This document shows positions 1-64,000 of a stretch of DNA of 64,000 nt, one piece after another. The position numbers and the translations under genes are program-made. Origin of the DNA: Terracoccus sp. 273MFTsu3.1 (GTDB lineage Bacteria; Actinomycetota; Actinomycetes; Actinomycetales; Dermatophilaceae). How positions within the stretch are numbered: the first letter of the stretch is position 1; each line of letters starts with the position of its first letter. The notes below the pieces were generated by a model, which saw nothing but the letters and a program-made list of their open reading frames with translations, was not told the DNA's origin and ran no database searches. The DNA lies in NCBI RefSeq assembly GCF_000383675.1, contig NZ_KB911827.1:124001-188000 (forward strand), in the 5' to 3' direction.

Positions 1-1
1 G

Positions 2-1660
2 CAGGCGGCCGTCAACCGAGGCCACCACGACGGCTGGGTGCCGGCCAAGGGCACGACGACGATGGCCTACCTCGAGCGCCAGGACGCGGCCTTCCACTAC
101 GCGCTGGCCGACGCCTTCACCGTGTGCGACGCCTACTACTGCTCGTTCATCGGCAACACCGACCCGAACCGCTACTACCTGTGGTCCGGATGGACGGGCA
201 ACGACGGCAAGGGTGGTGGCCCCGTGCTCTACAACGACGAGGTCGGCTACGACTGGCGGACCTATCCCGAGCGACTCGAGCAGGCGGGCGTGTCGTGGAA
301 GGTCTACCAGGACGAGGGCACCGGGCTCGACGCCGCCGGCTCCTGGGGCTGGACATCGGATCCCTACATCGGCAACTACGGCGACAACTCGCTGCTCTAC
401 TTCAACCGCTACCGAGATGCCAAGCCCGGAGACCCGTTGTACGAGAGGGCCCGTCGCGGCACGAGGGCGCGTGACGGGCAGGACTACTTCGAGCAGCTGC
501 GCCAGGACGTCGAGGCGGGCACCCTGCCGTCGGTCAGCTGGATCGCGGCGCCCGAGGCGTTCAGCGAGCACTCGAACTGGCCGACGAACTACGGAGCCTG
601 GTACATCTCCAAGGTCCTCGACACCCTGACCTCGAACCCCGAGGTGTGGGCCCGGACCGTCCTGCTCATCACCTACGACGAGAACGACGGCTTCTTCGAC
701 CACCTCGTGCCCCCGCACGCGAACTCGCCTGTCATCCCCGGCGCCTCGACCGTGTCGACCGCCGACGAGTTCTACGACGGCGAGCACGGTCCCGGCGCCT
801 ACGGCATGGGTCCGCGCGTGCCGATGTTCGTCGTGTCGCCGTGGAGCACGGGTGGCTGGGTCTCGTCGGAGACCTTCGACCACACGTCCGTCATCCGGCT
901 CATGGAGACGCGCTTCGGGGTCAAGGAGCCCAACATCACGCCGTGGCGGCGCACGGTCGCCGGCGACCTCACGTCGGCCTTCGACTTCTCGAAGACCGTC
1001 GAGAAGGTGCCCGCACTCCCGAGCACGACGAGCTGGAAGCCGTTCGACGACCAGCGGCACCCGTCGTACCGGCCCGCGCCACCGGCGCAGGGGTCCATGC
1101 CGTCGCAAGAGCCGGGGACGCGGCCGGCGCGGCCCACGCCCTACGACCTCGTCGTCCGCGAGCAGCAGACCCGGGGCGCGATCACCGTCGACCTCGACAA
1201 CCGCGGGCGACGCGGCGCGCACCTCCAGGCGCGGCTCGTCGAGCCGGCGGGGCCACCGCACAGCTACACGGTCGGCGCCGGCGACGAGCTGCGGGCGACG
1301 TGGCCCGTCAGCGGCGACTACGACATCCACGTGCACGGGCCGAACGGCTTCTTCCGCCGCTTCGCCGGTGACACGAGGACCGACCGCATCCGCGTCGAGG
1401 TGATCCGGGTCGGGCGCACCCAGCGCCTCTCGGTCACCGTCGAGGCACCGCGCGGCGTCCGCGTCGCGGTCGAGGACGCGTACGGCAGACGCACCACCGT
1501 CGGCCGGCGCCCCGTCGTCGTCGACACGTCGGCGAACGGCGGGTGGTACGACCTCACCGTCGTCGCCGAGGAGGGCCCCTTCCTCCGCGGCTTCGCGGGG
1601 CACCTGGGGACGGGTCGTCCGTCCATCAGCGAGCCGGCGCTGGGCCACGCCAACGGCTGA
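2..1660 (+). CDS. phosphocholine-specific-type phospholipase C, 3' part (5' end outside window)
   Basis: Secreted enzyme expected to hydrolyse the phosphodiester of phospholipids outside the cell. The reading frame is open from the first bases, and conserved family sequence (NRGHHDGW, then GTTTMAYLERQD) precedes the first possible internal start at 38, so the true start and signal peptide lie upstream. The phosphoesterase domain shows DAYYCSFIG and DPNRYYLWSGW, and VSWIAAPEAFSEH followed by TYDENDGFFDH, typical of the PLC/acid phosphatase superfamily. The last 170 or so residues look like two C-terminal beta-rich repeats (DUF756 type) found in bacterial PLCs. It converges on narK with a hairpin between them. 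Family assignment is firm; substrate preference is inferred. Confidence 0.9.
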   Translation, partial: QAAVNRGHHDGWVPAKGTTTMAYLERQDAAFHYALADAFTVCDAYYCSFIGNTDPNRYYLWSGWTGNDGKGGGPVLYNDEVGYDWRTYPERLEQAGVSWKVYQDEGTGLDAAGSWGWTSDPYIGNYGDNSLLYFNRYRDAKPGDPLYERARRGTRARDGQDYFEQLRQDVEAGTLPSVSWIAAPEAFSEHSNWPTNYGAWYISKVLDTLTSNPEVWARTVLLITYDENDGFFDHLVPPHANSPVIPGASTVSTADEFYDGEHGPGAYGMGPRVPMFVVSPWSTGGWVSSETFDHTSVIRLMETRFGVKEPNITPWRRTVAGDLTSAFDFSKTVEKVPALPSTTSWKPFDDQRHPSYRPAPPAQGSMPSQEPGTRPARPTPYDLVVREQQTRGAITVDLDNRGRRGAHLQARLVEPAGPPHSYTVGAGDELRATWPVSGDYDIHVHGPNGFFRRFAGDTRTDRIRVEVIRVGRTQRLSVTVEAPRGVRVAVEDAYGRRTTVGRRPVVVDTSANGGWYDLTVVAEEGPFLRGFAGHLGTGRPSISEPALGHANG

Positions 1661-1684
1661 CCCCCGACAGGCGTATGCGGCGCG

Positions 1685-1719
1685 CCGGGCACCCCGGGTC
1701 GAGCACCCCGGGTGCCCGG
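1685..1719. terminator. hairpin between convergent PLC and narK
   Basis: Fifteen-base arms (1685-1699 and 1705-1719) pair with one mismatch around a 5-nt loop. There is no T tract. Its position between two converging genes suggests a bidirectional terminator. Confidence 0.6.
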
Positions 1720-1755
1720 TGACGGCGCCGGCGTCGCCGGTGGACCTGCGTGCCG

Positions 1756-2994: not shown

Positions 2995-3024
2995 GGCTCT
3001 CCTCGGTGCAGGGTCGGTCGTCGG

Positions 3025-3774: not shown

Positions 3775-4457
3775 GAGCCCACTCCCGTCGGCGCGCCGGA
3801 CGAGACCGGTTGGAGCGGAAGGAGTCTCGGGTCGTAGGGCTCGAGCCCGACCGTCTCCGTCGGGTGCGGTCCGCTCAGCCCGACCATCTCCATGACCGCG
3901 GCGCGGTCGGGCGGGGACTCTCCGGGAAGGGTCGCGCACACGGCGACGACGGCGGCGACATACGCGCTCTCTTTCTCCTGCAACGCGATCCGCAGCAGCT
4001 CGAGGCTCGCGCGATACTCCTGGAGGAGTGCGGCGCCGGCCTCCGGGTCGATGCGTGCCGCGAACTCGAGCACCATCGGGAGGTAGTCGGGCAGCTCCCC
4101 GTGCGTGTCGACCACCGCGCCACTGCTGCGGTATGCCGTCTTGAACCGTCCCAGCACCTCGCCGCGTCGGCGGGTGTCGCCGTCGGTCCAGTACGACAGG
4201 TACAGCGCGTGCTTGCGACTGAGGTCGAAAGTGTCGACGTACGCGCGTTGGAGATCGGACAGAGCGGCTTCGCCGAGGTGGGCGACGAGACTCGCCAAGG
4301 CCGTGGCGGCGACCGAGTCGCGCTGCTCTGCAAGGGCATCGCGCATCGAGGGGAGGTCGGCGACGAGATCGGCGGACGGGTAGTCGAGGCAGCGTCCGGC
4401 CACGAGGTGCACGACGCGGTCGTCGCGTGGTGCAGCCCGCCGGCGCAGCCCGATCAC
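3771..4457 (-). CDS. narJ: nitrate reductase assembly chaperone NarJ
   Basis: Cytoplasmic chaperone (228 aa) that binds apo-NarG during cofactor insertion and membrane docking. The sequence is helical and acidic. The block DTFDLSRKHALYLSYWTDGDTRRRG is the hallmark of the NarJ/TorD-like family, followed by ELPDYLPMVLEFAA. The GTG start overlaps the narH stop by 4 nt and its own stop overlaps narI by 4 nt, so translation of the operon is probably coupled. Confidence 0.92.
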   Translation of the reverse strand: MIGLRRRAAPRDDRVVHLVAGRCLDYPSADLVADLPSMRDALAEQRDSVAATALASLVAHLGEAALSDLQRAYVDTFDLSRKHALYLSYWTDGDTRRRGEVLGRFKTAYRSSGAVVDTHGELPDYLPMVLEFAARIDPEAGAALLQEYRASLELLRIALQEKESAYVAAVVAVCATLPGESPPDRAAVMEMVGLSGPHPTETVGLEPYDPRLLPLQPVSSGAPTGVGS

Positions 4458-6145
4458 GGTGAATCCCCGTCCGAGCGGCCCGGGAAGAGCCCCGGGGGAG
4501 CGCCGTTGCCGTCCCAGTTGAGCAGGTTGACCCGCCCGGTCAGGGAGCCGGACTCGGTCGTCGCCATCGCCGTGTCGGACGTCTGCCGCTGCTTGAGCGC
4601 GTTGAACGTCTCGACGGCCACCGGTGCGGGCCGGCCGCTCGCCTCGCCGAACGGGCCGGACTCGTACATGCCCGGACCCTCGTCGAAGTCGAGCGAGCAG
4701 CCGATCTCCTCGAGCTCGTGGGCGCGCTCGACGTGGGCGGTCGGGATGACGTAGCGGTCGGCGTACTTCGCGATCGCCATGAGGCGGTACATCTCGTAGA
4801 GCGACTCCTCGCTCATGCCGACCGCCTCGGGGATGGCGGGGTCTCCGTCGCGGCCGAGCGACACGTCGCGCATGTAGGCGCGCATCGCGGCGAGCTTCTG
4901 GAGCACGCCCGTGATGATGTCCGTGCGCCCGGCGGTGAAGAGCTCGGCGAGGTAGTCGACGGGGATGCGCAGCGCCTCGATCGCTCCGAACAGGACGGTG
5001 CGGTCCTCGGCGTCGTGGCCCTGCGACGACAGCACGTCGACGATCGGCGAGAGCGGCGGGACGTACCAGACCATCGGCATCGTGCGGTACTCCGGGTGCA
5101 GGGGCAACGCCACCCGGTAGGTCTTGGCGAGCGCGTACACGGGTGAGCGCCGCGCCGCGTCCATCCAGTCGTCGGGTATGCCGTCGCGCCGGGCCGCGGC
5201 GACGACCTCGGGGTCGCTCGGGTCGAGCAGGAGGTCGAGCTGCGCCTCGTAGAGGTCACCCTCGTCAGGGGTCGCGGCGGCTGCCGTGACCCGGTCGGCG
5301 TCGTAGAGGAAGAGCCCGAGGTAGCGCAGCCGCCCGACGCACGTCTCGGAGCAGACGGTCGGCAGCCCCACCTCGACGCGGGGGTAGCAGAAGGTGCACT
5401 TCTCGGCCTTGCCGCTCTTGTGGTTGAAGTAGATCTTCTTGTACGGGCACCCGGTGATGCACTGTCGCCATCCGCGGCACCGGTCCTGGTCGACGAGGAC
5501 GATGCCGTCCTCCTCGCGCTTGTAGATCGCGCCGGAGGGGCACGAGGCCATGCACGACGGGTTGAGGCAGTGCTCGCAGATGCGCGGGAGGTAGAACATG
5601 AAGGTCTTCTCGAGCTCGAAGCGGACCTTCTCCTCCGACTCGCGCCGCACCGAGGCGTTGAGCTTGGCGACGATCGGGTCGAGGTGCCCCATCTCGCTCG
5701 CGCCGCCGAGGTTGTCGTCCCAGTTGGCCGACCACGTGATCTTCGTGTTCTCGCCGGTGATGAGCGACTTGGGCCGGGCGACCGGGAAGTCGTCACCGAG
5801 GGGTGCCTCGATGAGGGTCTGGTAGTCGTACGTCCAGGGCTCGTAGTAGTCGGCGAGCTTGGGCTGCACGGGGCTCGCGAAGATGCCGAGCAGCTTCTGC
5901 ACCCGGCCGCCCGCCTTGAGCTTGAGGCTGCCGCGGTGGGTGAGCGTCCAGCCGCCCTTCCACGTCTCCTGGTCCTCGTAGCGGCGCGGATACCCCTGAC
6001 CCGGACGCGTCTCCACGTTGTTGAACCAGACGTACTCGGTGCCCGCGCGGTTGGTCCACGCCTGCTTGCACGTGACCGAGCACGTGTGGCACCCGATGCA
6101 CTTGTCGAGGTTCATCACCATGCCCATCTGGGCCATGACACGCAT
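4454..6145 (-). CDS. narH: nitrate reductase beta subunit (iron-sulfur)
   Basis: Electron-transfer subunit (563 aa) carrying three [4Fe-4S] clusters and one [3Fe-4S] cluster between NarI and NarG. The first Cys group is C16-I-G-C-H-T-C-S-V-T-C26. Later groups are CEHCLNPSCMASCP, CRGWRQCITGCP (Trp in place of Cys, the NarH [3Fe-4S] signature) and CTFCYPR...CSETC. The ATG at 6145 shares one base with the narG stop (TGATG); extending upstream would run over narG in another frame. Codon GGC-ATA within DGIPDD uses rare Ile ATA and coincides with a GTATGCCG octamer at 5176. Confidence 0.95.
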   Translation of the reverse strand: MRVMAQMGMVMNLDKCIGCHTCSVTCKQAWTNRAGTEYVWFNNVETRPGQGYPRRYEDQETWKGGWTLTHRGSLKLKAGGRVQKLLGIFASPVQPKLADYYEPWTYDYQTLIEAPLGDDFPVARPKSLITGENTKITWSANWDDNLGGASEMGHLDPIVAKLNASVRRESEEKVRFELEKTFMFYLPRICEHCLNPSCMASCPSGAIYKREEDGIVLVDQDRCRGWRQCITGCPYKKIYFNHKSGKAEKCTFCYPRVEVGLPTVCSETCVGRLRYLGLFLYDADRVTAAAATPDEGDLYEAQLDLLLDPSDPEVVAAARRDGIPDDWMDAARRSPVYALAKTYRVALPLHPEYRTMPMVWYVPPLSPIVDVLSSQGHDAEDRTVLFGAIEALRIPVDYLAELFTAGRTDIITGVLQKLAAMRAYMRDVSLGRDGDPAIPEAVGMSEESLYEMYRLMAIAKYADRYVIPTAHVERAHELEEIGCSLDFDEGPGMYESGPFGEASGRPAPVAVETFNALKQRQTSDTAMATTESGSLTGRVNLLNWDGNGAPPGLFPGRSDGDSP

Positions 6146-9100
6146 CAGTACGTCACCTCCTGCGAGCGCTTGCGCACCGTCGAGACCATGTCGCGTTGGT
6201 TGCCCGTCGGTCCGAGGTAGTTGAACGTGTAGGACAGCTGGGCGTAGCCGCCGATGAGGTGGGTCGGCTTGACGAGGAGCCGCGTCACCGAGTTGTGGAT
6301 GCCGCCGCGGCGACCGGTCGCCTCCGACTTCGGCACGTCGATGGTGCGCTCCTGCGCGTGGTGGACGTAGACCACGCCCTCCGGCATGCGGGGACTGACG
6401 ATCGCCCGACCGACGAGCACGCCGTTGGTGTTGAGGCACTCGACCCAGTCGTTGTCGGCGACGTCGATGGAGCCGGCGTCCTGCGGGCTCATCCACACGG
6501 TCGGGCCGCCGCGTGAGAGCGAGAGCATGAGGAGGTTGTCCTGGTACTCCGAGTGGATCGACCACTTCGAGTGCGGCGTGAGGTAGCGGACGGTCACCTG
6601 CTTCGACCCGTCGGGCCCGAGCTTCGGCTCTCCGAAGAGGCGGTGCATGTCGAGGGGTGGCCGGTAGATGGGCAGCGCCTCGCCGAGGTCCTGCATCCAG
6701 TCGTGGTCGAGGTAGAAGTGCATCCGACCGGTGAGGGTGTGGAAGGGCTTGAGGCGCTCGATGTTGACGGTGAAGGGTGCGTAGCGCCGTCCGCCGGTCT
6801 CGGAGCCCGACCACTCGGGCGACGTGATGACGGCCACCGGTGCGCTCTGCGTGTCGGCGAAGGTGACGTGCTTCTCCTCAGAGCCCTCGGCGAGGTCGAC
6901 GAGCTTTCTGCCGACCCGCTGCTCGAGGGTGCGGAAGCCCTGCACGGCGAGGTGGCCGTTGGTCGTGCCGGAGAAGGTGAGGATCGCCTCGGCCATCTTC
7001 GCGTCGGTGTCGATCGCCGGACGGCCGTCACCCGCGCCCCCGAGCATGACGCCGTTCTTCGCGGCGAGGCGGGCCACCTCCTCCTCGACCCGGTAGGTGA
7101 CGTTCTTGACCGTGAAGCCCAGGCTGTCGGCGAGCGGGCCCACGGTGGCGAGCTTCTCGCTGATCGCGGTGTAGTCGCGCTCGACGAGCTGGAAGACCGG
7201 CATCGTCCGGCCCGGCACACCGGGCTGCCCGGTGCCTCGCCAGTCCACCGCGCGCCCTCCGGGCTGGGCCGTCTCTCCGGGGGTGTCGTGCATGAGCGGC
7301 ACGCTGACGAGGTCCTTGCGGACTCCGAGGTGGGTGCGCGCGAGGTCCGAGAGCTTCTCCGCGAGGAGGTGGAAGAGCTCGAAGTCGCTCTTGGCCTCCC
7401 ACGGCGGGTCGATGGCGGGCGTGAAGGCGTGCACGAAGGGGTGCATGTCGGTCGAGCTGAGGTCGTGCTTCTCGTACCACGTCGCCGCGGGCAGGACGAT
7501 GTCGGAGAGCAGCGTCGTCGACGTCATGCGGAAGTCGGCCGAGAGCAGCAGGTCGAGCTTGCCCTCGGGCGCCTCGTCGTGCCATCTGACCTCGGACGGC
7601 CTTGGTGCCAGAGGGTTCTCGCTGCCGAGGACGTTGTGGTGCGTGCCGAGCAGGTTGCGGAGGAAGTACTCGTTGCCCTTGGCCGAGGACCCCATGAGGT
7701 TGCTCCGCCACAGCACGAGGGTGCGGGGCCAGTTCTGCGGGGCGTCGACGTCCTCGATCGCCGAGGTCAGGGTGCCGTCGTGCAGGGCGCCGGCCACGTA
7801 TGCCGCCGGGCTGGCGGCGGTGCCCGCGTCGACGGCGGCCTGGGCGTCCTCCGCCACCTGCAGCGGGTTGGTCCCGAACTGCGGGTAGAACGGCATCCAC
7901 CCCATCCGGGCGGACTGCGCGATGGTGTCGGCCGTGTGCTTGCCGGCCAGATGTCCCCTCGCCAGAGGCGAGTTCAGCGAGTCGGCGGAGTAGCCGTCGT
8001 TGCGCCACTGGTCGGTGTGCATGTACCAGTACGACGTGCCCGTCATGGTGCGTGGCGGTCGGCCCCAGTCGAGGGCGTTGGCCAGGGAGATCCAGCCCGT
8101 GATGGGCCGGCACTTCTCCTGGCCGACGTAGTGCGCCCACCCGCCGCCGTTGCGGCCCATGCAGCCGGTGAGGATCAGCAGCGAGAGGATCGCGCGGTAG
8201 GTCGCGTCGCCGTGGAACCACTGGCAGATGCCCGCGCCCATGATGATCATCGAGCGCCCCTGCGACTGTTCGGAGTTCGTCGCGAACTCGCGGGCGATGC
8301 GGATGCACTGCTCCGCCGGCACACCGGTGATCTCGGCCTGCCAGGCAGGCGTGTAGGGCGACTCGACGTCGTCGTAGCCGCTCGGCCACTGGCCCGGCAG
8401 GCCGTCACGTCCGACGCCGTACTGCGCGAGCATCAGGTCGAAGACCGTCGTCACGAGGTGCTCGCCGACCCGACGGGCCGGCACGCCGCGCCGCAGCACC
8501 GACCCGGTGCCGTCGGGCTCGACGAAGGCCGGCAGCAGGACCTCCACCGCCTGGGCGGCGCCTCCCGCCATGGTCAGGGCCGGGGTCACGCCGTCGAGGT
8601 CGAGGTTCCATCGACCCATGCCGGAGTCGGCGTAGCGGAAGCCCATCGAGCCGTTCGGCACGACCGGCTGACCGGTCACCTCGTCGAGCAGCACCGTCTT
8701 CCAGGCATCCTCGTCGGGAACGGCGGCCCCCTCAGCCGCGAGGTCGGCCGCGGTGAGGAACTTGCCGGGAACGAGGGGAGCGCCGGCCCCCTCACCCGAG
8801 GCGGCGGCATACGGCTCCTCGGGTGTCTCGAGGCGGACGAGGAAGGGAAGGTCGCTGTAGGTGCGCACGTAGTCGGTGAAGAAGGGGACCTCACGGTCGA
8901 CGAAGAACTCCTTGAGGAGCACGTGGCCCAGGGCCATCGCGAGCGCCGCGTCCGTGCCGGCCTGGGCCGGCATCCACTCGTCGGCGAACTTCGTGTTGTC
9001 GGCGTAGTCGGGGCTGACCGTGACGATCTTCGTGCCGCGGTAGCGCACTTCGGCCATCCAGTGCGCGTCGGGCGTGCGGGTCACGGGGACGTTGGAGCCC

Positions 9101-9956: not shown

Positions 9957-9959
9957 GGG

Positions 9960-14611: not shown

Positions 14612-15088
14612 ATGGCACAGCACACCTTCCGGGTGAACGGCGAGTCCGTCACCGTCGACGTGGCCGACGACGTCCGGCTCCTCTGGGTCCTGCGCGACGT
14701 CCTCGGCATCACCGGCCCCAAGTACGGGTGCGGGATCAACGTCTGCAAGGCCTGCACCTCGCACATCAACGGCAAGGCCTTCAACCCCTGCTCCGTGCAG
14801 GTCAAGGACGTCGGCCCCGACGACGAGATCACGACGATCGAGGGCCTACCCGACACGGTCGGAGCGGATCTGCACCCCATGCAGGAGGCATGGTTGCAGC
14901 GGGACGTCGCCCAGTGCGGCTACTGCCAGCCGGGGCAGATCATGGCCGCGGTGGCGCTCGTGCGCTCGGTGCGGGCCGAGGGCCGCGCCATCACCGACGA
15001 CGACCTCGACGGCATACGCAACGTCTGTCGGTGTGGCACGTACACCCGCATCCGCGAGGCCATCCGGGACGGCGCCGAGCGCATGTAG
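14612..15088 (+). CDS. molybdenum hydroxylase [2Fe-2S] small subunit (IorA type)
   Basis: 158-aa electron-transfer partner of the preceding gene. The N-terminal plant-type ferredoxin domain has CGINVCKAC and the later C of NPCSV. The C-terminal helical domain has CGYC and CRC, ligating two [2Fe-2S] clusters. ATG at 14612 uses the GAGGAGC that overlaps the upstream stop. The protein has no signal, so it would be exported piggyback on the Tat-bearing large subunit. In-frame DGIRN uses rare Ile ATA where a GTATGCCG octamer falls (15010). Confidence 0.92.
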   Translation: MAQHTFRVNGESVTVDVADDVRLLWVLRDVLGITGPKYGCGINVCKACTSHINGKAFNPCSVQVKDVGPDDEITTIEGLPDTVGADLHPMQEAWLQRDVAQCGYCQPGQIMAAVALVRSVRAEGRAITDDDLDGIRNVCRCGTYTRIREAIRDGAERM

Positions 15089-15627: not shown

Positions 15628-17424
15628 TCAGAGCTGGCGGCTGCTCAGCACCGACGAGCGGTCGATCTTGAGGATCCCGCCGTCGTCGACGAGGGAGTAT
15701 GCCGTCCGCTCCTCGAACCGACGCCCGTCGTCGAAGGCGTAGCGCAAGGTCGCGACGACCGACCCCGGCGCCGACCCCGTCGCCTGGCGGACGTCGACGG
15801 AGGAGACGGAACCCCAGAAGCGCTCGTAGGTCGCGCGGCTGCCGGACGTCGTCGACCGGTAGCGGTCGGTCAGGCGCGCCCACCCCGCGTCCGTGTCACC
15901 GGGGAGCAGCGCGTAGTAGTCCCGCACGGCACGGGCCAGCTCGGCGTCCGTAGGGCTCCCCGACACCGTCGTGGACGGAGCCGTCGAGGGAGCGGTGGAC
16001 GGCGGGTTGGACCGGGTCGCCGGGCGCGAGCTGGTCGGAGCGCTCGTCGGGGGTGAGGGTGTCTCGGCCCGCGATGTCGTCGGGGACGTCGGCGGCCGCG
16101 TCACGCTCGAGGTCCTCGGACTGCTCGATGCGGCGGGCGGCGCCGCCTGGCCGCCAGGGCCGGTGGAGTCGCGTTGCAGGCCCCAGATGGCCAGGCCGGC
16201 TCCGGCGAGCACGACGAGAGCCACGACGAGCAGCACGGCGGGGCGGCGGCGCCCCGGGGCCGCGCCGTGCCGGACCACGTCGGCGCCGCTGCCGTCATCG
16301 TCGTCGTCATCGTCGTCGCGGTCGCCGCCGCCCCCAGGCTTCGTCGGGTCGGACGGTCGAGGTGTGACGGCTCGGGCCGGCGTGTCGGTGCTGCCGGATG
16401 CCGCGGCCGCCGGCAGTGGGCTGGTGTCCGAGGTGTCGCCGCTGCGCTCGTCGCCGAGGGGGTCATCGCCGACGACCGCCGCTGCGCCGCCGGCGGCCGC
16501 TCCTCCCGCGGTCCCTGCCGTCCCACCGAGGGGGAGGACCCGCGTCCGGTCCGGCCGCAGGCCGGTGCCCGCACCGGGAGGGGGCACGGGGCCCCGGGGT
16601 GGACGTCCGGCCGCGATCTCAGCGAGGTCGGCCGAGACGTCCTCCATCGAGGGCCGGTCGTCGGGTGACGCGGCGAGCATCGCGAGCAGGACGGGGGCGA
16701 GCGGGCCGTCAGCGGGCGGGGTGATCGAGCCGGAGGCCACCCGGTGCAGCAGGGCCATCGGGTTGTCTCCGGTGCCGAACGGCGGCGAGCCCTCGGCGGC
16801 GGCATACAGGGTCGCCCCGAGGGAGAAGACGTCCGAGGCCGGGCTCGAGGGCGCCCCACGCGCGACCTCCGGAGCGAGGTAGGCCGGGGTTCCGGTCACC
16901 ATGCCGGTCGAGGTGAGGGACACGTCGCCGACGGCGTGCGAGATCCCGAAGTCGGTGATGCGGGCCGTGCCGTCCTCGGCGACGAGCACGTTGCCCGGCT
17001 TGACGTCGCGGTGCACGATGTCGGCGCGGTGCGCGGCAGCGAGGGCAGCGGCGAGCTCGGCGCCGAGCTTGGCCACCTCGCGCACCGGCAGGGGCCCGCG
17101 CTCGGCCAGCACGGCGTGCAGGCTGCGCGACGGGAGGTACTGCATGACGAGGCACGGCTGGCCGTCGTGGTCGACGACGTCGAAGACGGGCACCGCGTTG
17201 GGGTGGTGCAGACGGGCTGTGTTGCGGGCCTCCCGCATGGCGCGTGCGTGGGCGACCCGGGCATCGGCCTCGTCGAGGCCGACGGGGGAGTGCAGCTGCT
17301 TGACGGCCACGGCGCGGCTCAGTCGCTCGTCCCAGGCCAGCCACACGTGGCCCATGCCGCCGGAGCCGATCTGGTTCATGAGCCGGTAGCGCCCGGCGAT
17401 GAGGTCAGGCTGTACGTCCACCAT
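15628..17424 (-). CDS. transmembrane Ser/Thr protein kinase (PASTA-less PknB type)
   Basis: 598 aa. The cytoplasmic kinase domain (about residues 11-275) shows the glycine loop GSGGMGHVWLA, VAVK lysine, HRDVKPGN catalytic loop, DFG, and APE in the activation segment, so it should be active. A Pro/Gly/Asp-rich linker (poly-Asp D-D-D-D near residue 405) leads to one TM helix (VLLVVALVVLAGAGLAIWG). Outside lies a Ser/Thr-rich stalk and a compact domain of about 100 residues (DAELARAVRDYYALLPGDTDAGWARL) that resembles small SnoaL-like folds. The ATG at 17424 has GGAGGGG upstream. Substrates unknown. Confidence 0.9.
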   Translation of the reverse strand: MVDVQPDLIAGRYRLMNQIGSGGMGHVWLAWDERLSRAVAVKQLHSPVGLDEADARVAHARAMREARNTARLHHPNAVPVFDVVDHDGQPCLVMQYLPSRSLHAVLAERGPLPVREVAKLGAELAAALAAAHRADIVHRDVKPGNVLVAEDGTARITDFGISHAVGDVSLTSTGMVTGTPAYLAPEVARGAPSSPASDVFSLGATLYAAAEGSPPFGTGDNPMALLHRVASGSITPPADGPLAPVLLAMLAASPDDRPSMEDVSADLAEIAAGRPPRGPVPPPGAGTGLRPDRTRVLPLGGTAGTAGGAAAGGAAAVVGDDPLGDERSGDTSDTSPLPAAAASGSTDTPARAVTPRPSDPTKPGGGGDRDDDDDDDDGSGADVVRHGAAPGRRRPAVLLVVALVVLAGAGLAIWGLQRDSTGPGGQAAPPAASSSPRTSSVTRPPTSPTTSRAETPSPPTSAPTSSRPATRSNPPSTAPSTAPSTTVSGSPTDAELARAVRDYYALLPGDTDAGWARLTDRYRSTTSGSRATYERFWGSVSSVDVRQATGSAPGSVVATLRYAFDDGRRFEERTAYSLVDDGGILKIDRSSVLSSRQL

Positions 17425-30781: not shown

Positions 30782-30788
30782 ACGGTGG

Positions 30789-44763: not shown

Positions 44764-45480
44764 ATGACCATCACGACCTCCAGCCTCACCCGTGCCGCCG
44801 GCGCTGCCGCTGCGGTTGCCGGACTCCTCTTCATCGGCGTCCAGGTCAACCATCCGGCCATGGACGTGTCGTCCGTCGAGAGCACCGAGTGGGTCCTGCG
44901 CAACACCGCGAAGGTGGTCCTCAGCGCCCTCGCGCTCGGCGGCGTCACCGGGATGTACCTGCGCCAGGTGCGGCAGACGGGCTGGCTCGGCCTCGTCGGC
45001 TGGGCCCTCTCGGCCGTCGGCTTCCTCGTCATGGGCAGCGTCGCGTTCGTGGCGGCATACGTCCTGCCGACGCTGGCGGACACGGCGCCCCGCTACGTCG
45101 ACGACCTGCTCGTCGCAGCCAGCGGAGGGCACCCGGTGGGCGACATCGGGCTCATGCAGGGCGTGCTCCTCGTCTCGGCCGTCGCGTACGTCGGCGGAGG
45201 CGTCACGCTCGGCGTCGCCATGTTCCGGGCCAGGGTCCTGGCTCGCTGGGCGGCCGCCCTGCTCGCCCTCGGCTGCGGTGCCACCGTGCTGCTGTCCGTC
45301 CTGCCCCACTCCTTCGAGCGGCCGATGGCCGTCCCGGCCGGGGTCGCCCTCATCGGCCTCGGAGTCTCCCTGTGGCGCAACGCGACCCAGACTTCCATCG
45401 CCGCTCCCGCCGACGTCAGCTCGCCCGACGCGAGCTCGCCCGACGCGAGCGTGCCCGCCGTCGCCAGGGCCGTGCGATGA
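44764..45480 (+). CDS. hypothetical membrane protein, 238 aa
   Basis: Six or so TM helices; N-terminal AAAVAGLLFIGVQVNHPAMD and VLRNTAKVVLSALALGGVTGMYLRQ resemble small integral membrane proteins often placed near DUF2306 genes. Stop overlaps the next ATG. The tail has repeated SSPDA units. Adjacent decayed LuxR gene was perhaps its regulator. Confidence 0.65.
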   Translation: MTITTSSLTRAAGAAAAVAGLLFIGVQVNHPAMDVSSVESTEWVLRNTAKVVLSALALGGVTGMYLRQVRQTGWLGLVGWALSAVGFLVMGSVAFVAAYVLPTLADTAPRYVDDLLVAASGGHPVGDIGLMQGVLLVSAVAYVGGGVTLGVAMFRARVLARWAAALLALGCGATVLLSVLPHSFERPMAVPAGVALIGLGVSLWRNATQTSIAAPADVSSPDASSPDASVPAVARAVR

Positions 45481-46205
45481 CCGACGACGTGGTGGACCGG
45501 CGCCGGATCGCCCGGCGCCGGTCCGGTCGACGGGGGCGGTCCGCCGGCTGGGGCGGTCCGGTGGCGATGATCGCCCTGTCGGCCGTCCCGCTCGCGGCCG
45601 GTGCGCTGCGGCTGGCCCAGATCGGGGGCGTCGCACAGGTCGTGCCGGCGGACCGCCGCTTCGCCGACGCGCCGGCGCCGCTGGTGCTCCACATCGTGGG
45701 AGCCGCCGTCTACGCCGTCATCGGGGCCCTTCAGCTCGTGCCCGCCCTCCGGCGCCGGCACCCCGTCTGGCACCGCCGCGCCGGTCGCGTCGTCACGGGC
45801 GTGGGTGTGCTCGTGGCCGGGTCGGCGTTGTGGATGACCCTGCTGTATGCCGCCAAGCCGGGCACGGGCGACCTGCTGTACGTCCTCCGGCTGGCCTTCG
45901 GGTCGGCCATGGTCGCCTGCCTCGTCCTCGGGATCACCGCCATCCGCCGGGGCGACGTGCCGCACCACCGGGCGTGGATGATCCGCGCGTACGCCATCGC
46001 GCTCGCCGCGGGGACGCAGATGTTCACCGAGGGCATCGGCGGCGCCCTGTTCGGCACCGGTGGGCTCAAGGGCGATCTCGCCAAGGCCGCCGGATGGGTC
46101 ATCAACCTCGCCGTGGCCGAGTGGGTCATCCGTCGTTCGGCTCCCGCCCCGACCGCCCGGCCGGGCCGAAACCCGTCCGTCGCAGCCACGGGCCTGTCGT
46201 CATGA
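45477..46205 (+). CDS. DUF2306 family membrane protein
   Basis: 242 aa with seven hydrophobic segments. HIVGAAVYAVIGALQLVPALRRRHPVWHRRAGRV is the family hallmark, with later GDVPHHRAWMIRAYA (His-rich). Overlaps neighbours on both sides by ATGA. Function unknown; the histidines may ligate metal or haem. Confidence 0.85.
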   Translation: MTDDVVDRRRIARRRSGRRGRSAGWGGPVAMIALSAVPLAAGALRLAQIGGVAQVVPADRRFADAPAPLVLHIVGAAVYAVIGALQLVPALRRRHPVWHRRAGRVVTGVGVLVAGSALWMTLLYAAKPGTGDLLYVLRLAFGSAMVACLVLGITAIRRGDVPHHRAWMIRAYAIALAAGTQMFTEGIGGALFGTGGLKGDLAKAAGWVINLAVAEWVIRRSAPAPTARPGRNPSVAATGLSS

Positions 46206-50514: not shown

Positions 50515-50639
50515 ACGGGCTCCTTGGTCGGGATTTGCTGCTCCGCACAGGTTACGCCTCCCCACGGACAGTTCCGGACCACCCTCGACGAGGGCCGTAT
50601 GCCGTCCGGTCCCGGTCCGGCCGAGCGGTGACGTGCGCG

Positions 50640-52654: not shown

Positions 52655-52769
52655 CGATCCCCCTGGTTCGACCGGTTGGTGGTCGACACCCTAGAGGGGG
52701 GCCCGACGGGCCGCGCGCGGACCCGCCGGGGCACGACACGGCATACGGCCCCGGGAAGGCCGGGACGGG

Positions 52770-53441: not shown

Positions 53442-53453
53442 CGCCGGGCGGCA

Positions 53454-53459
53454 TACGAT
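53454..53459 (+). promoter_or_regulatory. -10 box (TACGAT) of leaderless oxidoreductase gene
   Basis: 6 nt from the ATG at 53466. It overlaps a CGGCATAC octamer (53449-53456). Its -35 would fall over the start of lipB. Confidence 0.6.
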
Positions 53460-54533: not shown

Positions 54534-54657
54534 CGGCGGTCCCGACACCGACCGCGGGCGTATGCCGGGTGGCCGGGTCCGTCGTCGGGCGCGGTCCCCG
54601 TCGCGCCCCTGTGGACGACGAGCCCCCGGCCCGGCGCGGCGCTGTTTGCATGGTCGG

Positions 54658-56256
54658 GTGACCGAGCACGAGCGAGAGAAGCGACCAGAGCAGCCGGCCG
54701 AGCGGCCCCACGTACCGGGGCACCGCGTCGATGCGGTCATCGGCACGGGCGCGTCGGCGGTCGTGTGGTCGGGGGCCGACGCGACGGGACGCCGGGTGGC
54801 GATCAAGGTGCCGCACCTCGTGCGCGACGAGCTCGACCGGCAGCAGTCCCTCGCCGAGCAGCAGGTCCTGCTCGCCGTGCAGCACGACCACCTCGTCCCG
54901 CTCCGGTCGGTCGTGCCCCTTGCCGACGGTCGCGAGGCGCTCGTCTTCGACCTCGTCACGGGAGCCCTGTTGTCCGCGATGGTGCGCAGTCGCGGCCACC
55001 TGCGCGCGGGCGAGGTCGTCACCGTCCTGACGCCGGTCTGCGAGGCCGTGGCCCACCTCCACGCGGCGGGCGGCGTGCACGCCGACATCTCCCCGTCCAA
55101 CGTCACCCTGACCTCGGAGGGACGCCCGGTCCTGCTCGACCTCGGCGCCGTGCGGGTGCCCGGTCGCGAGCCCGGGGCCGTGCACGGCACGACCGGATAC
55201 ATCGCTCCGGAGGTGCTCCTCGGCGCGGCGCCGGACGAGTCCTCCGACGTGTACGCCCTCGGTGCCGTCGCGTGGTTCTGTCTCACCGGCAACGGTGCGC
55301 CGGACACGATGGTGCGGCTCGACGAGGAGATCATCGTCAGCCACGTCGGGCCCGAGCTCGCGGCCGTCATCGCGTCGGCCATCGACCCCGAGCCGACCCG
55401 CCGTCCGGGCGCGGCCGAGCTGGCCGGCCTCTTCTTCGACGCCGTCCCGCCCGAGCCCGTCGAGGTCGTCGTCGGGGCCGACCAGGCTTCGGCGCTGACC
55501 CACCGGCTCCGGGCCGAGGCCGGGGTCGAGCCGTCACCCGCACAGCAGGACGGCCGTCGGTGGCCCCGCCGGGCCGCCACGGCGGCGCTCGTCGCGGTGC
55601 CGTTGGTGGCCGCCGCGGGGTGGGCGCGGGCGGTCCGGGATCCCGTGTCGACTCCGCCGCCGGGGGCGGTGACGACGGCGACGGGACGCCCCGCCCCGCG
55701 ACCGGCAGGCGCCGGGCCGACGAAGCCGACGCAGCCGACGGCGTCGACGCAGCCCGCGACCTCGTCGCCGGCGTCGGCGCGACCGACGCCGGCGGTTCCG
55801 ACGGTTCCCACTGCACCGGCTCCGGACGTCAGCGCGGTGGAGCGGGTGCTGCGCGACGCCCAGAGCCCCTCGGCCAGGCCGGAGGAGCTGCTGCAGGCCC
55901 TGAGCGACCGGCGGTCGGCCGCCCTCGTCGGGCGAGACCCGACGGCACTCGGAAGGGTCCACGCGACCGGCTCACCGAGCCTGTCGAGCGACCAGACCCT
56001 GGTCTCGGGGCTCGTCGACGCCCGGACGCGCTGGGAGGGGCTGCGGCTCGAGGTCGCCGAGGCGGCCTTCGTGACCGGGTCGCCGACGGAGGCGGTCGTG
56101 CGCGCCCGGGTCGACTGGACGGCATACGTCGTCGTCACGGGTGGTGGGGCGCGGCTCGCGCGACCGGCGGACGTCGGTCGTCAGCTCGACTTCCGGCTCA
56201 CGCGCGGGTCCGAGGGGTGGCGGATCAGCGCGATCAGCGCTTCACCAACCACCTGA
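54658..56256 (+). CDS. atypical Ser/Thr kinase-like membrane protein
   Basis: 532 aa from GTG. Kinase fold with IGTGASAVVWSG and VAIKVP, but the catalytic loop is HADISPSN (Lys missing, HAD for HRD) and DFG is DLG. Later, GTTGYIAPEV is normal. One TM helix (AALVAVPLVAAAGWA) leads to a Pro/Thr-rich stalk and an external domain of about 130 residues. Probably a low-activity or pseudokinase receptor. Its 3' end overlaps the convergent TIGR01777 gene by 23 nt. Confidence 0.85.
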   Translation: MTEHEREKRPEQPAERPHVPGHRVDAVIGTGASAVVWSGADATGRRVAIKVPHLVRDELDRQQSLAEQQVLLAVQHDHLVPLRSVVPLADGREALVFDLVTGALLSAMVRSRGHLRAGEVVTVLTPVCEAVAHLHAAGGVHADISPSNVTLTSEGRPVLLDLGAVRVPGREPGAVHGTTGYIAPEVLLGAAPDESSDVYALGAVAWFCLTGNGAPDTMVRLDEEIIVSHVGPELAAVIASAIDPEPTRRPGAAELAGLFFDAVPPEPVEVVVGADQASALTHRLRAEAGVEPSPAQQDGRRWPRRAATAALVAVPLVAAAGWARAVRDPVSTPPPGAVTTATGRPAPRPAGAGPTKPTQPTASTQPATSSPASARPTPAVPTVPTAPAPDVSAVERVLRDAQSPSARPEELLQALSDRRSAALVGRDPTALGRVHATGSPSLSSDQTLVSGLVDARTRWEGLRLEVAEAAFVTGSPTEAVVRARVDWTAYVVVTGGGARLARPADVGRQLDFRLTRGSEGWRISAISASPTT

Positions 56257-61027: not shown

Positions 61028-61160
61028 CCCGGCGACACGGCATACGACCTCGTGGTCGGTTGCCGGGCAAAAGGGGTGGACCGGGCCCCGGTTCGCTGAC
61101 AGGGTGAAAAGCGTTCAGTCCGTGCCGGATTCGGCGCCACAGCACACAGGAGGTTCTCGA

Positions 61161-61365: not shown

Positions 61366-61402
61366 GGAGAGGCCCCGTTCCGTCACGGAACGGGGCCTCT
61401 CC
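61366..61402. terminator. hairpin between DUF5302 gene and pepA
   Basis: Perfect 17-bp stem (61366-61382 with 61386-61402), 3-nt loop. Convergent genes, so likely bidirectional. Confidence 0.8.
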
Positions 61403-61412
61403 CACATCGGCG

Positions 61413-62882
61413 TCAGACGTAGGACTCGGCGAGCCCCACGAGGGTGCGCACACCGAAGCCGGTGCCGCCCTTGGGCCAGTAGCCCGTCGGCGCCTTGTCG
61501 TTGTAGGCCGGTCCCGCGATGTCGAGATGGCTCCACGGGATGCCCTCGCCGACGAACTCACCGAGGAAGATGCCGGCGGTCAGCATGCCGCCCTCGGCGC
61601 CGCCCTTGTGCGCGAGATCGGCGTTGATCGAGTCGAGGCCCGGACGCAGCTCGGTCGGCAGCGGCATCGGCCACATGGCCTCGCCGACCGCCGACGCCGC
61701 GTCGAGGACTCGCGTGCGGAAGTCGTCGTCGTTGCCCATGACGGCGGCCGTGTTGGCGAGCGCCACGACCTGCGCACCGGTGAGGGTCGCGATGTCGACG
61801 ATGGCGTCGGGCTTGGTCTCGGAGGCCAGGGCGATGCAGTCGCCGAGGACCATGCGGCCCTCGGCGTCGGTGTTGAGCACCTCGACGGTCGTCCCACCAC
61901 GCATCGTCACGACGTCGCTGGGACGCTGGGCCGTGGAGCTCGGCATGTTCTCGGCCAGGCCGAGGTAGCCGGTGACGGCGATCGGCAGACCGAGCTCGGC
62001 GATGGCGAGGACGGCACCGGCGACGGCGGCCGCGCCGGCCATGTCGCACTTCATCGTCAGCATCCCGTTGGCCGGCTTGATGCAGAGGCCGCCCGAGTCG
62101 AAGGTGATGCCCTTGCCGACGAAGGCGATGGACGCCTTGGGACGTGTCGGCGTGTAGCTGAGGACGGCGATGCGCGGCTCGTTGGCCGAGCCCTGGCCGA
62201 CCCCCACGGTGCCCCCGAAGCCGCCGGCCCGCAGCGCCTTCATGTCGTAGGACTTGAGCTTGACCTTGGTGCCCTTGACGCGGTCGGCGAGCGAGTCGAC
62301 GAAGGTCTCCGGGTAGAGCAGGTTCGGCGGGAGGTTGACGAGGTCGCGCGTGTACGCCACGGCCTCGCCGAGGGCGGCGGCGCGCTTCACCGCGCGACGC
62401 GAGGCGGCGTCGGCGGGGCCGACGAGGGCGACCGCGCCGACGGCGTCGGTGCTCCGCGTGCCCGCCTTGGACACGGCATACGCCCCGAGGGCCACGCCCT
62501 CGGCGACGGCGGAGACGAGCTCGACCGACGTGCCGGGCACGACGACCGCGACCTTCTTCTTGCGGCTCAGGCTGCGGATCGCGCCGCCGAAGCCCTTGCG
62601 GACGTCCTCGAGGGCGGACGGGTCGCCGGACAGCTGCCCGACACCGGCGAGCACGACGAGCTTGGCGGCGACCTCCGGCACGGACGCGAGGGTCGTGACC
62701 TCGCCGACCGTGCCGGCGAGCTCGAGGTCGGTGACGACGGACTTGAGGTGGGCGACGGTCTTGCGGGGGAGTCCGTGGCCCGGGGCCAGGGCGGCGCCGC
62801 CGTCACCGGGGACGAGCGCGACGACGAGCGCGTCGCCGGCCGTGTCGGCGGCCGAGCGGTTCGAGATGGTCAGGTTGGCCAC
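61413..62882 (-). CDS. pepA: leucyl aminopeptidase (M17)
   Basis: 489 aa. Cytosolic dimetal aminopeptidase. Catalytic domain has GKGITFDSGGLCIKP (Lys and Asp ligands), MKCDMAGAAA, NTDAEGRMVLGD (catalytic Arg and acidic ligands) and a C-terminal GGTGFGVRTLV. GTG at 62882 has AAAGGAG 6 nt upstream; the frame is open upstream without support. A TATCAT -10 at 63019-63024 would give a leader of about 130 nt. Confidence 0.95.
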   Translation of the reverse strand: MANLTISNRSAADTAGDALVVALVPGDGGAALAPGHGLPRKTVAHLKSVVTDLELAGTVGEVTTLASVPEVAAKLVVLAGVGQLSGDPSALEDVRKGFGGAIRSLSRKKKVAVVVPGTSVELVSAVAEGVALGAYAVSKAGTRSTDAVGAVALVGPADAASRRAVKRAAALGEAVAYTRDLVNLPPNLLYPETFVDSLADRVKGTKVKLKSYDMKALRAGGFGGTVGVGQGSANEPRIAVLSYTPTRPKASIAFVGKGITFDSGGLCIKPANGMLTMKCDMAGAAAVAGAVLAIAELGLPIAVTGYLGLAENMPSSTAQRPSDVVTMRGGTTVEVLNTDAEGRMVLGDCIALASETKPDAIVDIATLTGAQVVALANTAAVMGNDDDFRTRVLDAASAVGEAMWPMPLPTELRPGLDSINADLAHKGGAEGGMLTAGIFLGEFVGEGIPWSHLDIAGPAYNDKAPTGYWPKGGTGFGVRTLVGLAESYV

Positions 62883-63054
62883 GAAGGACTCCTTTGTCGA
62901 GGTGCTGACGGGCGCACGGTCAGAGCACGTCCTTGAGGGGTGCGTCGGTGGTGCGTCGCTGGTGCACGGTTTCGTGCGCCGGTCGGCCTCACGACACCGC
63001 CGCGGGTGGCGGCGTTCGATGATAACGAGCCGAGGCGGCACACCCGGCGGGCGG

Positions 63055-63060
63055 TAGGTT
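63055..63060 (+). promoter_or_regulatory. -10 box (TAGGTT) of leaderless gcvT
   Basis: TAGGTT 7 nt before the ATG at 63068. It leaves no room for a glycine riboswitch between promoter and gene. Confidence 0.55.
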
Positions 63061-63067
63061 GGCGCCC

Positions 63068-64000
63068 ATGACGACAGCGACGTCGGGGACGACCTCCCCG
63101 CTGACCTCACCCCTGCACGACCGCCACGTCGCCCTCGGCGCGAAGATGGCCGACTTCGGTGGCTGGGACATGCCGATCGAGTACCCCGGTGGCGGCGTCG
63201 TCGCCGAGCACACGGCGGTGCGCGAGCGCGTCGGCGTCTTCGACGTGAGCCACCTCGGCAAGGCCTCGGTGACGGGTCCCGGCGCGGCCGACTTCGTCAA
63301 CGCGTGCCTGACCAACGACGTGCGCCGCATCCAGCCGGGCTCGGCGCAGTACACCCTGTGCTGCGACGACGCGGGCGGCGTCGTCGACGACCTCATCGTC
63401 TACCTCAAGTCCGACGACGACGTCTTCCTCATCCCCAACGCGGCCAACACCGCCGAGGTCGTGCGGCGCCTGCAGGCCGCCGCGCCGGAGGGCATCACCG
63501 TCACGAACCTGCACCGCGACTACGGCGTCATCGCCGTCCAGGGCACGAAGAGCGACGAGGTGCTCGAGTCCCTGGGGCTGCCGACCGGGCACGACTACAT
63601 GTCCTTCGTCGAGGCGGACTGGCAGGGGCGGCCCGTCATCGTCTGCCGCACCGGCTACACCGGTGAGCGCGGCTACGAGCTCGTCCCGCTCTGGGACGAC
63701 GCCCCGGCGCTCTGGGACGCCCTCGTGGCAGCCCTCGAGCCCTTCGACGGCAAGCCGTGCGGCCTCGGCGCGCGCGACACCCTCCGCACCGAGATGGGCT
63801 ACCCGCTGCACGGACAGGACCTGTCGCTGCAGATCTCACCCGTTCAGGCACGCGCCGGCTGGGCCGTGGGCTGGAAGAAGGACGCCTTCTGGGGCAAGCA
63901 GGCCCTCGAGGCCGAGCGGGCCAACCCGACACGCCTCATGCGGGGTCTGCTCGTGACCGGCCGCGGCATCCCGCGTGCGCACTGCACCGTCTCGTGGAAC
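63068..64000 (+). CDS. gcvT: glycine cleavage system T protein, 5' part
   Basis: 311 codons, running off the window. Aminomethyltransferase that forms methylene-THF and ammonia from the GcvH-bound intermediate. [48 protein letters not shown] and [17 protein letters not shown] are diagnostic. Leaderless ATG. Consumes lipoyl-GcvH, linking it to lipA/lipB. Confidence 0.95.

What the first reader, a model, noticed from the sequence alone, without database searches (positions are those of the whole stretch)
1..64000. Octamer GTATGCCG is strongly over-represented
By eye I count 25 exact copies on the two strands. GTATGCCG starts at 4131, 5176, 7798, 15697, 20670, 24958, 26649, 31943, 36892, 45845, 50597 and 54560. 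CGGCATAC starts at 8805, 15010, 16800, 22143, 30776, 31930, 43693, 45053, 52739, 53449, 56120, 61038 and 62474. Assuming 72% GC, random expectation is about 2. Every GTATGCC I found is followed by G, and five copies extend to GTATGCCGTGTC. In genes the word forces rare codons (Ile ATA in narH and in the IorA-type gene; Tyr TAT elsewhere). Both orientations are about equal, so a replication-polar signal is less likely than an uptake-like, recombination, methylation or nucleoid-protein site.
Basis: partly seen in the sequence, partly recalled or inferred. Interest (0 to 1): 0.75.

Follow-up and report, generated by a model that had tools for sequence, protein, structure and literature searches.

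The report
Genome-wide sequence tag in soil actinobacteria
A short DNA word is scattered about 2,200 times through this soil bacterium's genome, varies by one letter between related genera, and looks like the self-recognition tags that some Gram-negative bacteria use when taking up DNA, although its function here is not yet shown.

Summary
The count is right: 25 exact copies (12 +, 13 -) at the listed places, 0.96 expected from dinucleotide shuffles. It is genome-wide: 2,244 copies in 4.94 Mb against 257 for the reversed word, the most over-represented octamer in a 464 kb sample. Codon usage and protein sequence do not explain it (207 coding copies against 19.5).

9 of 9 genomes of the genus and 13 of 27 other genera of the family carry 939-4,724 copies; 0 of 22 genomes of other families of the order do, nor 0 of 154 outside the family in a sample of the class. 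Several sister genera carry words one base away (GGATGCCG, GTACGCCG, GTATGCGG), clustered on a ComEC tree.

Sites show no replichore bias, are denser between genes in 4 of 5 genomes, and in one genome extend to about 26 bp and form inverted hairpin pairs. This is the genomic signature of DNA uptake sequences (DUS/USS). ComEC and TadE genes are present but do not discriminate carriers. Uptake is inferred, not shown. RecBCD-Chi, REP/RAYT, replication-polar and codon explanations fail.

The parts
4131..4138 (+). tag copy, in a gene
   Evidence: identical in G008 and G005
5176..5183 (+). tag copy, in a gene
   Evidence: identical in G008 and G005
7798..7805 (+). tag copy, in a gene
   Evidence: GTAGGCCG in G008, identical in G005
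8805..8812 (-). tag copy, in a gene
   Evidence: identical in G008, G005
15010..15017 (-). tag copy, in a gene
   Evidence: GGATGCCG (the other dialect) in G008, identical in G005
15697..15704 (+). tag copy, in a gene
   Evidence: identical in G008, G007, GTAGGACG in G006
16800..16807 (-). tag copy, in a gene; not found in any of 4 aligned relatives
   Evidence: CTACGCCG, CTATGCCG, GTATGCGG, CTATGCCG in relatives
20670..20677 (+). tag copy, in a gene
   Evidence: identical in G008, G007, G006
22143..22150 (-). tag copy, in a gene
   Evidence: identical in G008, G006
24958..24965 (+). tag copy, in a gene
   Evidence: identical in 4 of 4 aligned relatives
26649..26656 (+). tag copy, in a gene
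   Evidence: identical in 4 of 4 aligned relatives
30776..30783 (-). tag copy, intergenic
   Evidence: identical in 4 of 4 aligned relatives
31930..31937 (-). tag copy, left half of an inverted pair inside panB
   Evidence: panB; identical in 4 of 4 aligned relatives; hairpin z -3.08
31943..31950 (+). tag copy, right half of the inverted pair inside panB
   Evidence: identical in 3 of 4 aligned relatives
36892..36899 (+). tag copy, in a gene
   Evidence: identical in 2 of 4 aligned relatives
43693..43700 (-). tag copy, in a gene
   Evidence: identical in G008, G007
45053..45060 (-). tag copy, in a gene
   Evidence: identical in G008
45845..45852 (+). tag copy, in a gene
   Evidence: identical in G008
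50597..50604 (+). tag copy, intergenic
   Evidence: identical in 4 of 4 aligned relatives
52739..52746 (-). tag copy, intergenic
   Evidence: identical in G008, G006, G005, GTATGCGG in G007, gapped in G003
53449..53456 (-). tag copy, in a gene
   Evidence: identical in 6 of 7 aligned relatives
54560..54567 (+). tag copy, intergenic
   Evidence: identical in 4 of 4 aligned relatives
56120..56127 (-). tag copy, in a gene
   Evidence: identical in 4 of 7 aligned relatives
61038..61045 (-). tag copy, intergenic
   Evidence: identical in 4 relatives, changed in G005 and G001, insertion next to it in G004
62474..62481 (-). tag copy, in a gene
   Evidence: identical in 3 of 7 aligned relatives, GTACGCCG or CTACGCCG in 4

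Best explanation
GTATGCCG is the core of a self-recognition tag that accumulates in the chromosomes of Terrabacter and many sister genera through biased natural transformation, as DUS and USS do in Neisseriaceae and Pasteurellaceae. Shown here: the word is real, genome-wide, family-restricted, without replication-strand bias, conserved at orthologous sites between the closest species, has a longer soft consensus, and has one-base dialects in sister genera. Inferred: a surface receptor, probably part of a Flp/Tad pilus plus ComEA/ComEC machinery, binds tagged double-stranded DNA; tagged fragments of kin are taken up and recombined more often; repeated recombination spreads and repairs the tag wherever proteins tolerate it; and the receptor's preference drifts between genera, giving dialects that limit exchange. 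The receptor was not identified.
For: Greatest excess of any octamer with 15 or more copies: 240 against 12.2 under order 3 in 464 kb. Coding copies 207 against 19.5 +/- 4.3 after synonymous-codon shuffling; G034 281 against 56.6; G023 48 against 8.4. Distribution: 9 of 9 own genus, 13 of 27 other genera of the family at 939 copies or more, 3 of 27 at 196-293, 11 of 27 at 11-95; 0 of 22 in other families of the order. Dialects: GGATGCCG 3,816 and 3,949 copies in G024 and G034, 1,548 in G055; GTATGCGG 34 against 2.3 in G028, GTACGCCG 53 against 12.2 in G031, GGATGCCT 31 against 2.9 in G055, each at or near the top of its sample; weaker cases G032 (GTACGCCC 33 against 5.7) and G027 (GTACGCCG 23 against 5.4); GTACGCCG top in five named Nocardioides loci, 65 against 10.6. 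Dialect labels cluster on a ComEC tree: 6 changes over 17 labelled rows, shuffled mean 9.4, as low in 0 of 200. Conservation: identical in G008 at 36 of 40 sites against 0.69 for all octamers and 261 of 466 for octamers holding TAT/ATA. No replichore bias. Intergenic density 2.2 times coding in G000, 3.1 times in G034, 14 times in G023. G023: consensus to about 26 bp, 11 of 11 close pairs inverted and intergenic, three folded as strong hairpins. comEA (HHH_3, SLBB) and comEC (Competence, Lactamase_B) stand side by side in Terrabacter; TadE in 56 of 58 genomes. M. luteus transformation needs comEA, comEC and two tad clusters (PMC4322843, passages). Word density on two Nocardioidaceae plasmids 0.17 and 0.26 per kb against 0.64 per kb in named Nocardioides loci; observed/expected 2.1 and 3.5 against 6.1.
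Against: I found no report of competence in this family. ComEC (57 of 58) and TadE (56 of 58) are as common in genera without the word, so the machinery does not predict the tag. Type IV pilins of PF07963, the kind of protein to which the DUS receptor belongs, are absent in 9 of 9 Terrabacter. Some signature features are missing in some carriers: G055 has hardly any intergenic excess and more same-way (7) than inverted (4) close pairs; Terrabacter has 5 inverted to 3 same-way. Conservation is clear only in some pairs: against all octamers p 0.002, 0.02, 0.07, 0.01 for G008, G007, G006, G005; against TAT/ATA octamers p 7e-6, 0.09, 0.08, 0.007, and nothing in G003 (3 of 5), G004 (0 of 3), G001 (3 of 4); sites are shared between comparisons, so these are not independent. 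No word was found in several genera of the family nor in Aeromicrobium, a Nocardioides relative. The prophage test could not be run (portal gene in 1 of 36 family genomes). Plasmid depletion was tested mainly for the Nocardioides word, on partial plasmids, and the plasmids still show a mild excess.
Confidence: 0.5

Rival explanations
1. A Chi-like recombination hotspot read by the actinobacterial helicase-nuclease AdnAB, marking self DNA during break repair.
For: Chi sites are also short, over-represented and asymmetric (recalled); AdnAB was found exclusively in Actinobacteria (PMC6452273, passages) and an enzyme can drift in specificity. AdnAB itself was not searched for here.
Against: No leading-strand bias in two complete genomes (170:207; 63:59). 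RecC, needed for a RecBCD Chi, is in 19 of 58 genomes but in only 4 of 22 carriers of GTATGCCG (G001, G019, G033, G035). Inverted intergenic hairpin pairs and a 26 bp consensus in G023 are unlike a Chi site.
Confidence: 0.2
2. A binding site of a chromosome-organising or nucleoid protein, spread evenly to fold or protect the chromosome.
For: Even spread: 13 to 23 copies in each of 20 samples around the G034 chromosome; no strand bias; no trend with distance from dnaA (Spearman p 0.39 in both G034 and G023); conserved sites.
Against: The word is at background in 11 of 27 sister genera and replaced by a one-base variant in others; more copies than the architectural sites I can recall.
Confidence: 0.13
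3. A selfish or mutational product: a REP-like element, or a biased repair or deamination process that makes the word.
For: G023 copies are 62% intergenic (80 of 128) with hairpin pairs, like REP/BIME elements.
Against: Y1/RAYT transposase PF01797 in 0 of 36 family genomes. Alternatives at orthologous sites include single changes at five of the eight positions, so no single mutation route; the possible deamination sources GTACGCCG, GCATGCCG and GTGTGCCG are not depleted (61 against 29, 37 against 41, 30 against 31.5), though GTCTGCCG is (25 against 46.5). Most Terrabacter copies lie in genes (207 of 268).
Confidence: 0.07
4. A DNA methylation or restriction target kept at high density.
For: Mosaic distribution between genera resembles that of restriction-modification genes (recalled).
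Against: Restriction targets are usually avoided, not enriched (recalled); the asymmetric soft consensus of 10 to 26 bp is unlike a methylase site. No methylase search or methylome was done.
Confidence: 0.06

Closest known systems
DNA uptake sequence (DUS) dialects of Neisseriaceae
   Same: Thousands of copies per genome, usually one dominant word per species, dialects a few bases apart that follow phylogeny (PMC3630211, abstract and section 6); in ORFs and between genes, excess in non-coding DNA, about 10% inverted repeats, no orientation bias (PMC1939737, passages). GTATGCCGTC shares ATGCCGTC with the neisserial 12-mer ATGCCGTCTGAA as printed in PMC5031613 (passages).
   Different: Gram-positive high-GC hosts; no PF07963 type IV pilin in Terrabacter; the neisserial core CTG is not in the octamer (TCTG follows 2 of 267 copies); uptake not shown.
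Uptake signal sequence (USS) of Pasteurellaceae
   Same: Short core, no orientation bias, excess in non-coding DNA (PMC1939737, passages); long soft flank as here to +21 in G023 (the USS flank is recalled).
   Different: Unrelated sequence and hosts; receptor unknown here; uptake not shown.
Chi sites (recalled)
   Same: Over-represented, asymmetric word.
   Different: No leading-strand bias; RecC absent in 18 of 22 carriers; one-base dialects between sister genera.
HIP1 of cyanobacteria (recalled)
   Same: Highly iterated octamer, mosaic between genera.
   Different: HIP1 is a palindrome; this word is not and has a directional flank.

Membership tests
DUS/USS | short word in hundreds to thousands of copies, most over-represented of its genome | tested here: met
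   (464 kb sample)
DUS/USS | no replication-strand bias | tested here: met
   170:207 and 63:59
DUS/USS | excess in non-coding DNA | tested here: met
   clear in G000, G034, G023, G028; hardly any in G055
DUS/USS | a fraction of copies as close inverted pairs | tested here: inconclusive
   G023 11 of 11 and G034 18 of 22 close pairs inverted; G000 5 of 8; G055 4 of 11; none in G028
DUS/USS | dialects that follow phylogeny | tested here: met
   the tree is one gene with 4 of 17 inner branches well supported
DUS/USS | tagged DNA is taken up preferentially by competent cells | not testable with these tools
   needs experiment
DUS/USS | host has DNA uptake machinery | tested here: inconclusive
   comEA/comEC in Terrabacter, ComEC 57 of 58, TadE 56 of 58: present but not discriminating
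DUS (neisserial) | type IV minor pilin receptor of the ComP kind | tested here: not met
   PF07963 in 0 of 9 Terrabacter, 2 of 36 family genomes; ComP itself was not searched
RecBCD Chi | RecC in carriers | tested here: not met
   absent in 18 of 22 carriers, G000 among them
AdnAB hotspot | leading-strand bias as for Chi | tested here: not met
   the presence of AdnAB was not tested
KOPS-like polar motif | strong replichore polarity | tested here: not met
REP/RAYT | Y1 transposase in the genome; mostly extragenic palindromes | tested here: not met
   PF01797 in 0 of 36; 207 of 268 Terrabacter copies in genes
restriction-modification site | modified base at the word | not testable with these tools
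   no methylome held

The most novel reading that the evidence does not exclude
Gram-positive actinobacteria have independently evolved sequence-specific self-DNA uptake: a third, broad system of uptake-tag dialects, spanning Dermatophilaceae in the GTDB sense (GTATGCCG, GGATGCCG, GTATGCGG, GTACGCCG) and Nocardioides (GTACGCCG), read by a Flp/Tad-type rather than a type IV pilus.
Probability: 0.42. Interest if true: 0.92.

Novelty: new variant of a known kind. Interest (0 to 1): 0.78.

Why it matters
A 2016 review names sequence tags restricting DNA uptake in two families, Pasteurellaceae and Neisseriaceae (PMC5031613, passages). A tag system with phylogenetic dialects in high-GC Gram-positive soil bacteria would be a convergent third case, would imply that gene exchange in these Actinomycetota is filtered by self-recognition, and would give a route to the unknown receptor through the tad and com genes. 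Even if the function proves different, a word of this density across many genera needs a reader protein, and my searches turned up none (of the 643 papers holding the letters GTATGCCG only 20 were listed).

Tried and rejected
Codon usage and protein composition: rejected by synonymous-codon shuffling. RNA-level signal: copies occur sense and antisense in genes with opposite excess in two genera (Terrabacter 130 sense, 77 antisense; G034 110 and 171). Deamination: rejected, the source words are not depleted and other routes are as common. RecBCD-Chi, replication-polar motif and REP/RAYT: rejected. Type IV pilins, TadE or ComEC as predictor of the word: none discriminates. ComEA: of 20 loci a crude pattern gave 13 helix-hairpin-helix C-termini, in carriers and non-carriers alike, one spurious hit (G027) and 6 misses, among them G000, whose comEA was seen; no specificity domain was found. 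Prophage depletion: not testable, one portal gene in 36 family genomes. Core versus accessory DNA in Terrabacter: no unaligned stretch of 800 bases or more in the syntenic sample, so no answer. No clear word in samples of G018, G021, G016, G010, G022, G017 (21-60 kb each) and only a weak one in G009 (GGATGCCG 1,336 copies; not among its top four octamers). An error of mine: one search applied a spread filter that drops very dense words, so it left out GTACGCCG in the Nocardioides set and GAAGGGGG in Janibacter; one search repeats the counts without the filter. The set called Nocardioides held one unnamed actinobacterial assembly (L148) and, in 46 and 63, one Nocardioidaceae assembly (L134), and left out L159; one search counts the five named loci. 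Literature: nothing on this word or on uptake tags in Actinobacteria in the listings; subscription journals are not held.
Full report
WHAT IS THERE. Dinucleotide shuffles of the window give 0.96 +/- 0.93. The window is bases 124001-188000 of contig 8 of an 18-contig, 4.94 Mb genome that holds 1,133 + 1,111 copies, against 116 + 141 of the reversed word. In a 464 kb sample it has the greatest excess of all octamers with 15 or more copies, 240 against 12.2 under an order-3 model. The genus is taken as Terrabacter: a same-genus genome, G007, has a contig of 1,058,669 bases, the length of the named contig of Terrabacter sp. Ter38. The family is taken as Dermatophilaceae of GTDB (recalled; the tools give no family name).

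NOT CODON USAGE. Shuffling synonymous codons within genes keeps proteins and codon usage and leaves 19.5 +/- 4.3 coding copies where 207 are seen; likewise the window alone (20 against 1.55), G034 (281 against 56.6) and G023 (48 against 8.4). Genes were called with a simple codon-usage scorer of my own, so frame and intergenic figures are approximate.

DISTRIBUTION. Of 36 genomes of the family, 9 of 9 of the genus (1,423-2,358 copies) and 13 of 27 other genera (939-4,724) carry the word; 3 of 27 have 196-293 and 11 of 27 have 11-95. None of 22 genomes from other families of the order exceeds 167. In a sample of 158 genomes of the class, 154 lie outside the family and none exceeds 386 (a 7.5 Mb genome with 176 for the reversed word).

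DIALECTS. Genera without the word often have a neighbour of it. GGATGCCG occurs 3,816 and 3,949 times in G024 and G034 and 1,548 times in G055, of another family, where the fuller form is CGGATGCC[TG]C. In samples of 80-120 kb, G028 has GTATGCGG (34 against 2.3), G031 GTACGCCG (53 against 12.2), and, less strikingly, G032 CGTACGCC/GTACGCCC (56 against 11.8, 33 against 5.7) and G027 CGTACGCCG (GTACGCCG 23 against 5.4). Named loci show the Terrabacter word in one of two Humibacillus loci (L089, 14; the other, L090, has GGATGCCG 13), three of three Knoellia and two of two Flexivirga loci, while Janibacter and three of four Phycicoccus loci have none. Flexivirga also has GTATGACG (28 against 3.0). 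GTACGCCG is the top octamer of five named Nocardioides loci (65 against 10.6) but not of three Aeromicrobium loci (13 against 7.0). No clear word was found in G018, G021, G016, G010, G022 or G017 (small samples). On a ComEC tree of 20 genomes the labels of 17 rows need 6 changes against a shuffled mean of 9.4, as low in 0 of 200; only 4 of 17 inner branches are well supported, two rows are under half filled, and three rows (G009, G014, G028) were left out of the groups.

ANATOMY. In Terrabacter the consensus is C-GTATGCCG-[T/C]C with weak further signal, part of it due to reading frame. In G034 it is C-GGATGCCG-[G/T] with added positions +12 and +16. In G023 it runs from about -4 to +21, [GT]GCCGTATGCCGCTG[GA]GC[TC]CGCTCCC. 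Copies lie in genes in several frames on both strands; intergenic density exceeds coding density in G000 (0.99 against 0.45 per kb), G034 (2.31 against 0.76), G023 (1.78 against 0.13) and G028 (0.90 against 0.28) but hardly in G055 (1.33 against 1.21). Convergent gaps are richest in G023 (3.39 per kb against 1.16 in divergent gaps) and G034 (4.64 against 1.63), slightly so in G000 (1.27 against 0.82), not in G055 (1.29 against 1.18) or G028 (none). Pairs closer than 60 bases are inverted in 11 of 11 cases in G023 (all intergenic), 18 of 22 in G034, 5 of 8 in G000 and 4 of 11 in G055. Three of the 11 G023 pairs, picked for short spacing, and the pair inside panB in the window were folded: z -3.4, -7.8, -9.9 and -3.1. 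The window pair lies at 31930-31950.

EVOLUTION. At aligned sites the octamer is unchanged in 36 of 40 (G008), 17 of 19 (G007), 12 of 17 (G006), 13 of 18 (G005), 3 of 5 (G003), 0 of 3 (G004) and 3 of 4 (G001). Against all octamers Fisher p is 0.002, 0.02, 0.07 and 0.01 for the first four. Against octamers with TAT or ATA it is 7e-6, 0.09, 0.08 and 0.007, and not significant in the other three. The same Terrabacter sites recur in these comparisons. Where the word is changed, single changes fall at five of its eight positions, so it is not one mutation route. Parts of two Nocardioidaceae plasmids hold the Nocardioides word at 0.17 per kb (17 in 100 kb of pNOCA01) and 0.26 per kb (13 in 50 kb of a Pimelobacter plasmid) against 0.64 per kb in the named Nocardioides loci; observed over expected is 2.1 and 3.5 against 6.1. 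An Ornithinimicrobium plasmid has 4 copies of GTATGCCG in 50 kb against 8 in 44 kb of chromosomal loci.

STRAND. With dnaA placed and the terminus taken as opposite, the G034 samples give 170 leading and 207 lagging (p 0.06), and G023 63 and 59. Density shows no trend with distance from dnaA (Spearman p 0.39 in each).

HOW IT MOST LIKELY WORKS. These are the genomic hallmarks given for uptake sequences: 65% (H. influenzae) and 35% (N. gonorrhoeae) in ORFs, more in non-coding DNA than expected, about 10% as inverted repeats, no orientation bias (PMC1939737, passages), and dialects that follow phylogeny (PMC3630211, abstract and section 6). I therefore take it as an uptake-like self tag kept by biased transformation. 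The machinery known from the actinobacterium Micrococcus luteus (comEA, comEC, two tad clusters; PMC4322843, passages) is present: comEA and comEC adjacent in Terrabacter, three TadE matches in G000. But ComEC and TadE are as common in genera without the word, so this is permissive, not diagnostic. PF07963 pilins are missing in 9 of 9 Terrabacter, so a receptor of that family is unlikely. The receptor, competence and preference are inferences.

RIVALS. RecBCD-Chi fails for want of RecC in 18 of 22 carriers and for want of strand bias. AdnAB, found exclusively in Actinobacteria (PMC6452273, passages), remains open. REP/RAYT fails for want of the transposase. Methylation and nucleoid-protein roles need experiment.

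A CURIOSITY. GTATGCCGTC contains ATGCCGTC, the first eight bases of the neisserial DUS as printed in PMC5031613 (passages). TC follows 72 of 267 Terrabacter copies, but TCTG only 2, so the neisserial core is not there, and I treat the overlap as chance.

VERDICT. The uptake-tag reading is the best supported, at about even odds.

Noticed in passing
L092, L097, L100 (Janibacter): A different dense word, GAAGGGGG/CCCCCTTC, 52 copies against 4.5 expected in 59 kb, in loci without GTATGCCG; could be another tag or a G-run signal.
   Followed up: partly
G014 stretches L190, L025, L026, L210: GGAG[CGT]CGGT family of 9-mers in excess (23, 20 and 11 copies in 80 kb), GGAGCCGG the top octamer (62 against 16.6); perhaps a more distant dialect.
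   Followed up: partly
L102, L104 (Flexivirga): Two words at once, GTATGCCG (31) and GTATGACG (28) in 44 kb, like the genome with two DUS dialects described in PMC3630211 section 6.
   Followed up: no
L108, L117 (Ornithinimicrobium): Both GTATGCGG (9 against 1.0) and GTATGCCG (8) in 44 kb, a possible mixed dialect.
   Followed up: no
family f1 genomes G000-G035: Phage portal gene PF04860 found in 1 of 36 genomes, so few prophages of that portal type.
   Followed up: no
G031 stretches L036, L037, L175: Longer repeated units (CAGTTCGACGG, ACGGTCACG and others) at high copy number within 60 kb, probably a repetitive gene.
   Followed up: no
L234, L235, L237 (Nocardioidaceae plasmids): pNOCA01 and the Pimelobacter plasmid carry genes annotated as tad pilus parts and dprA.
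   Followed up: no
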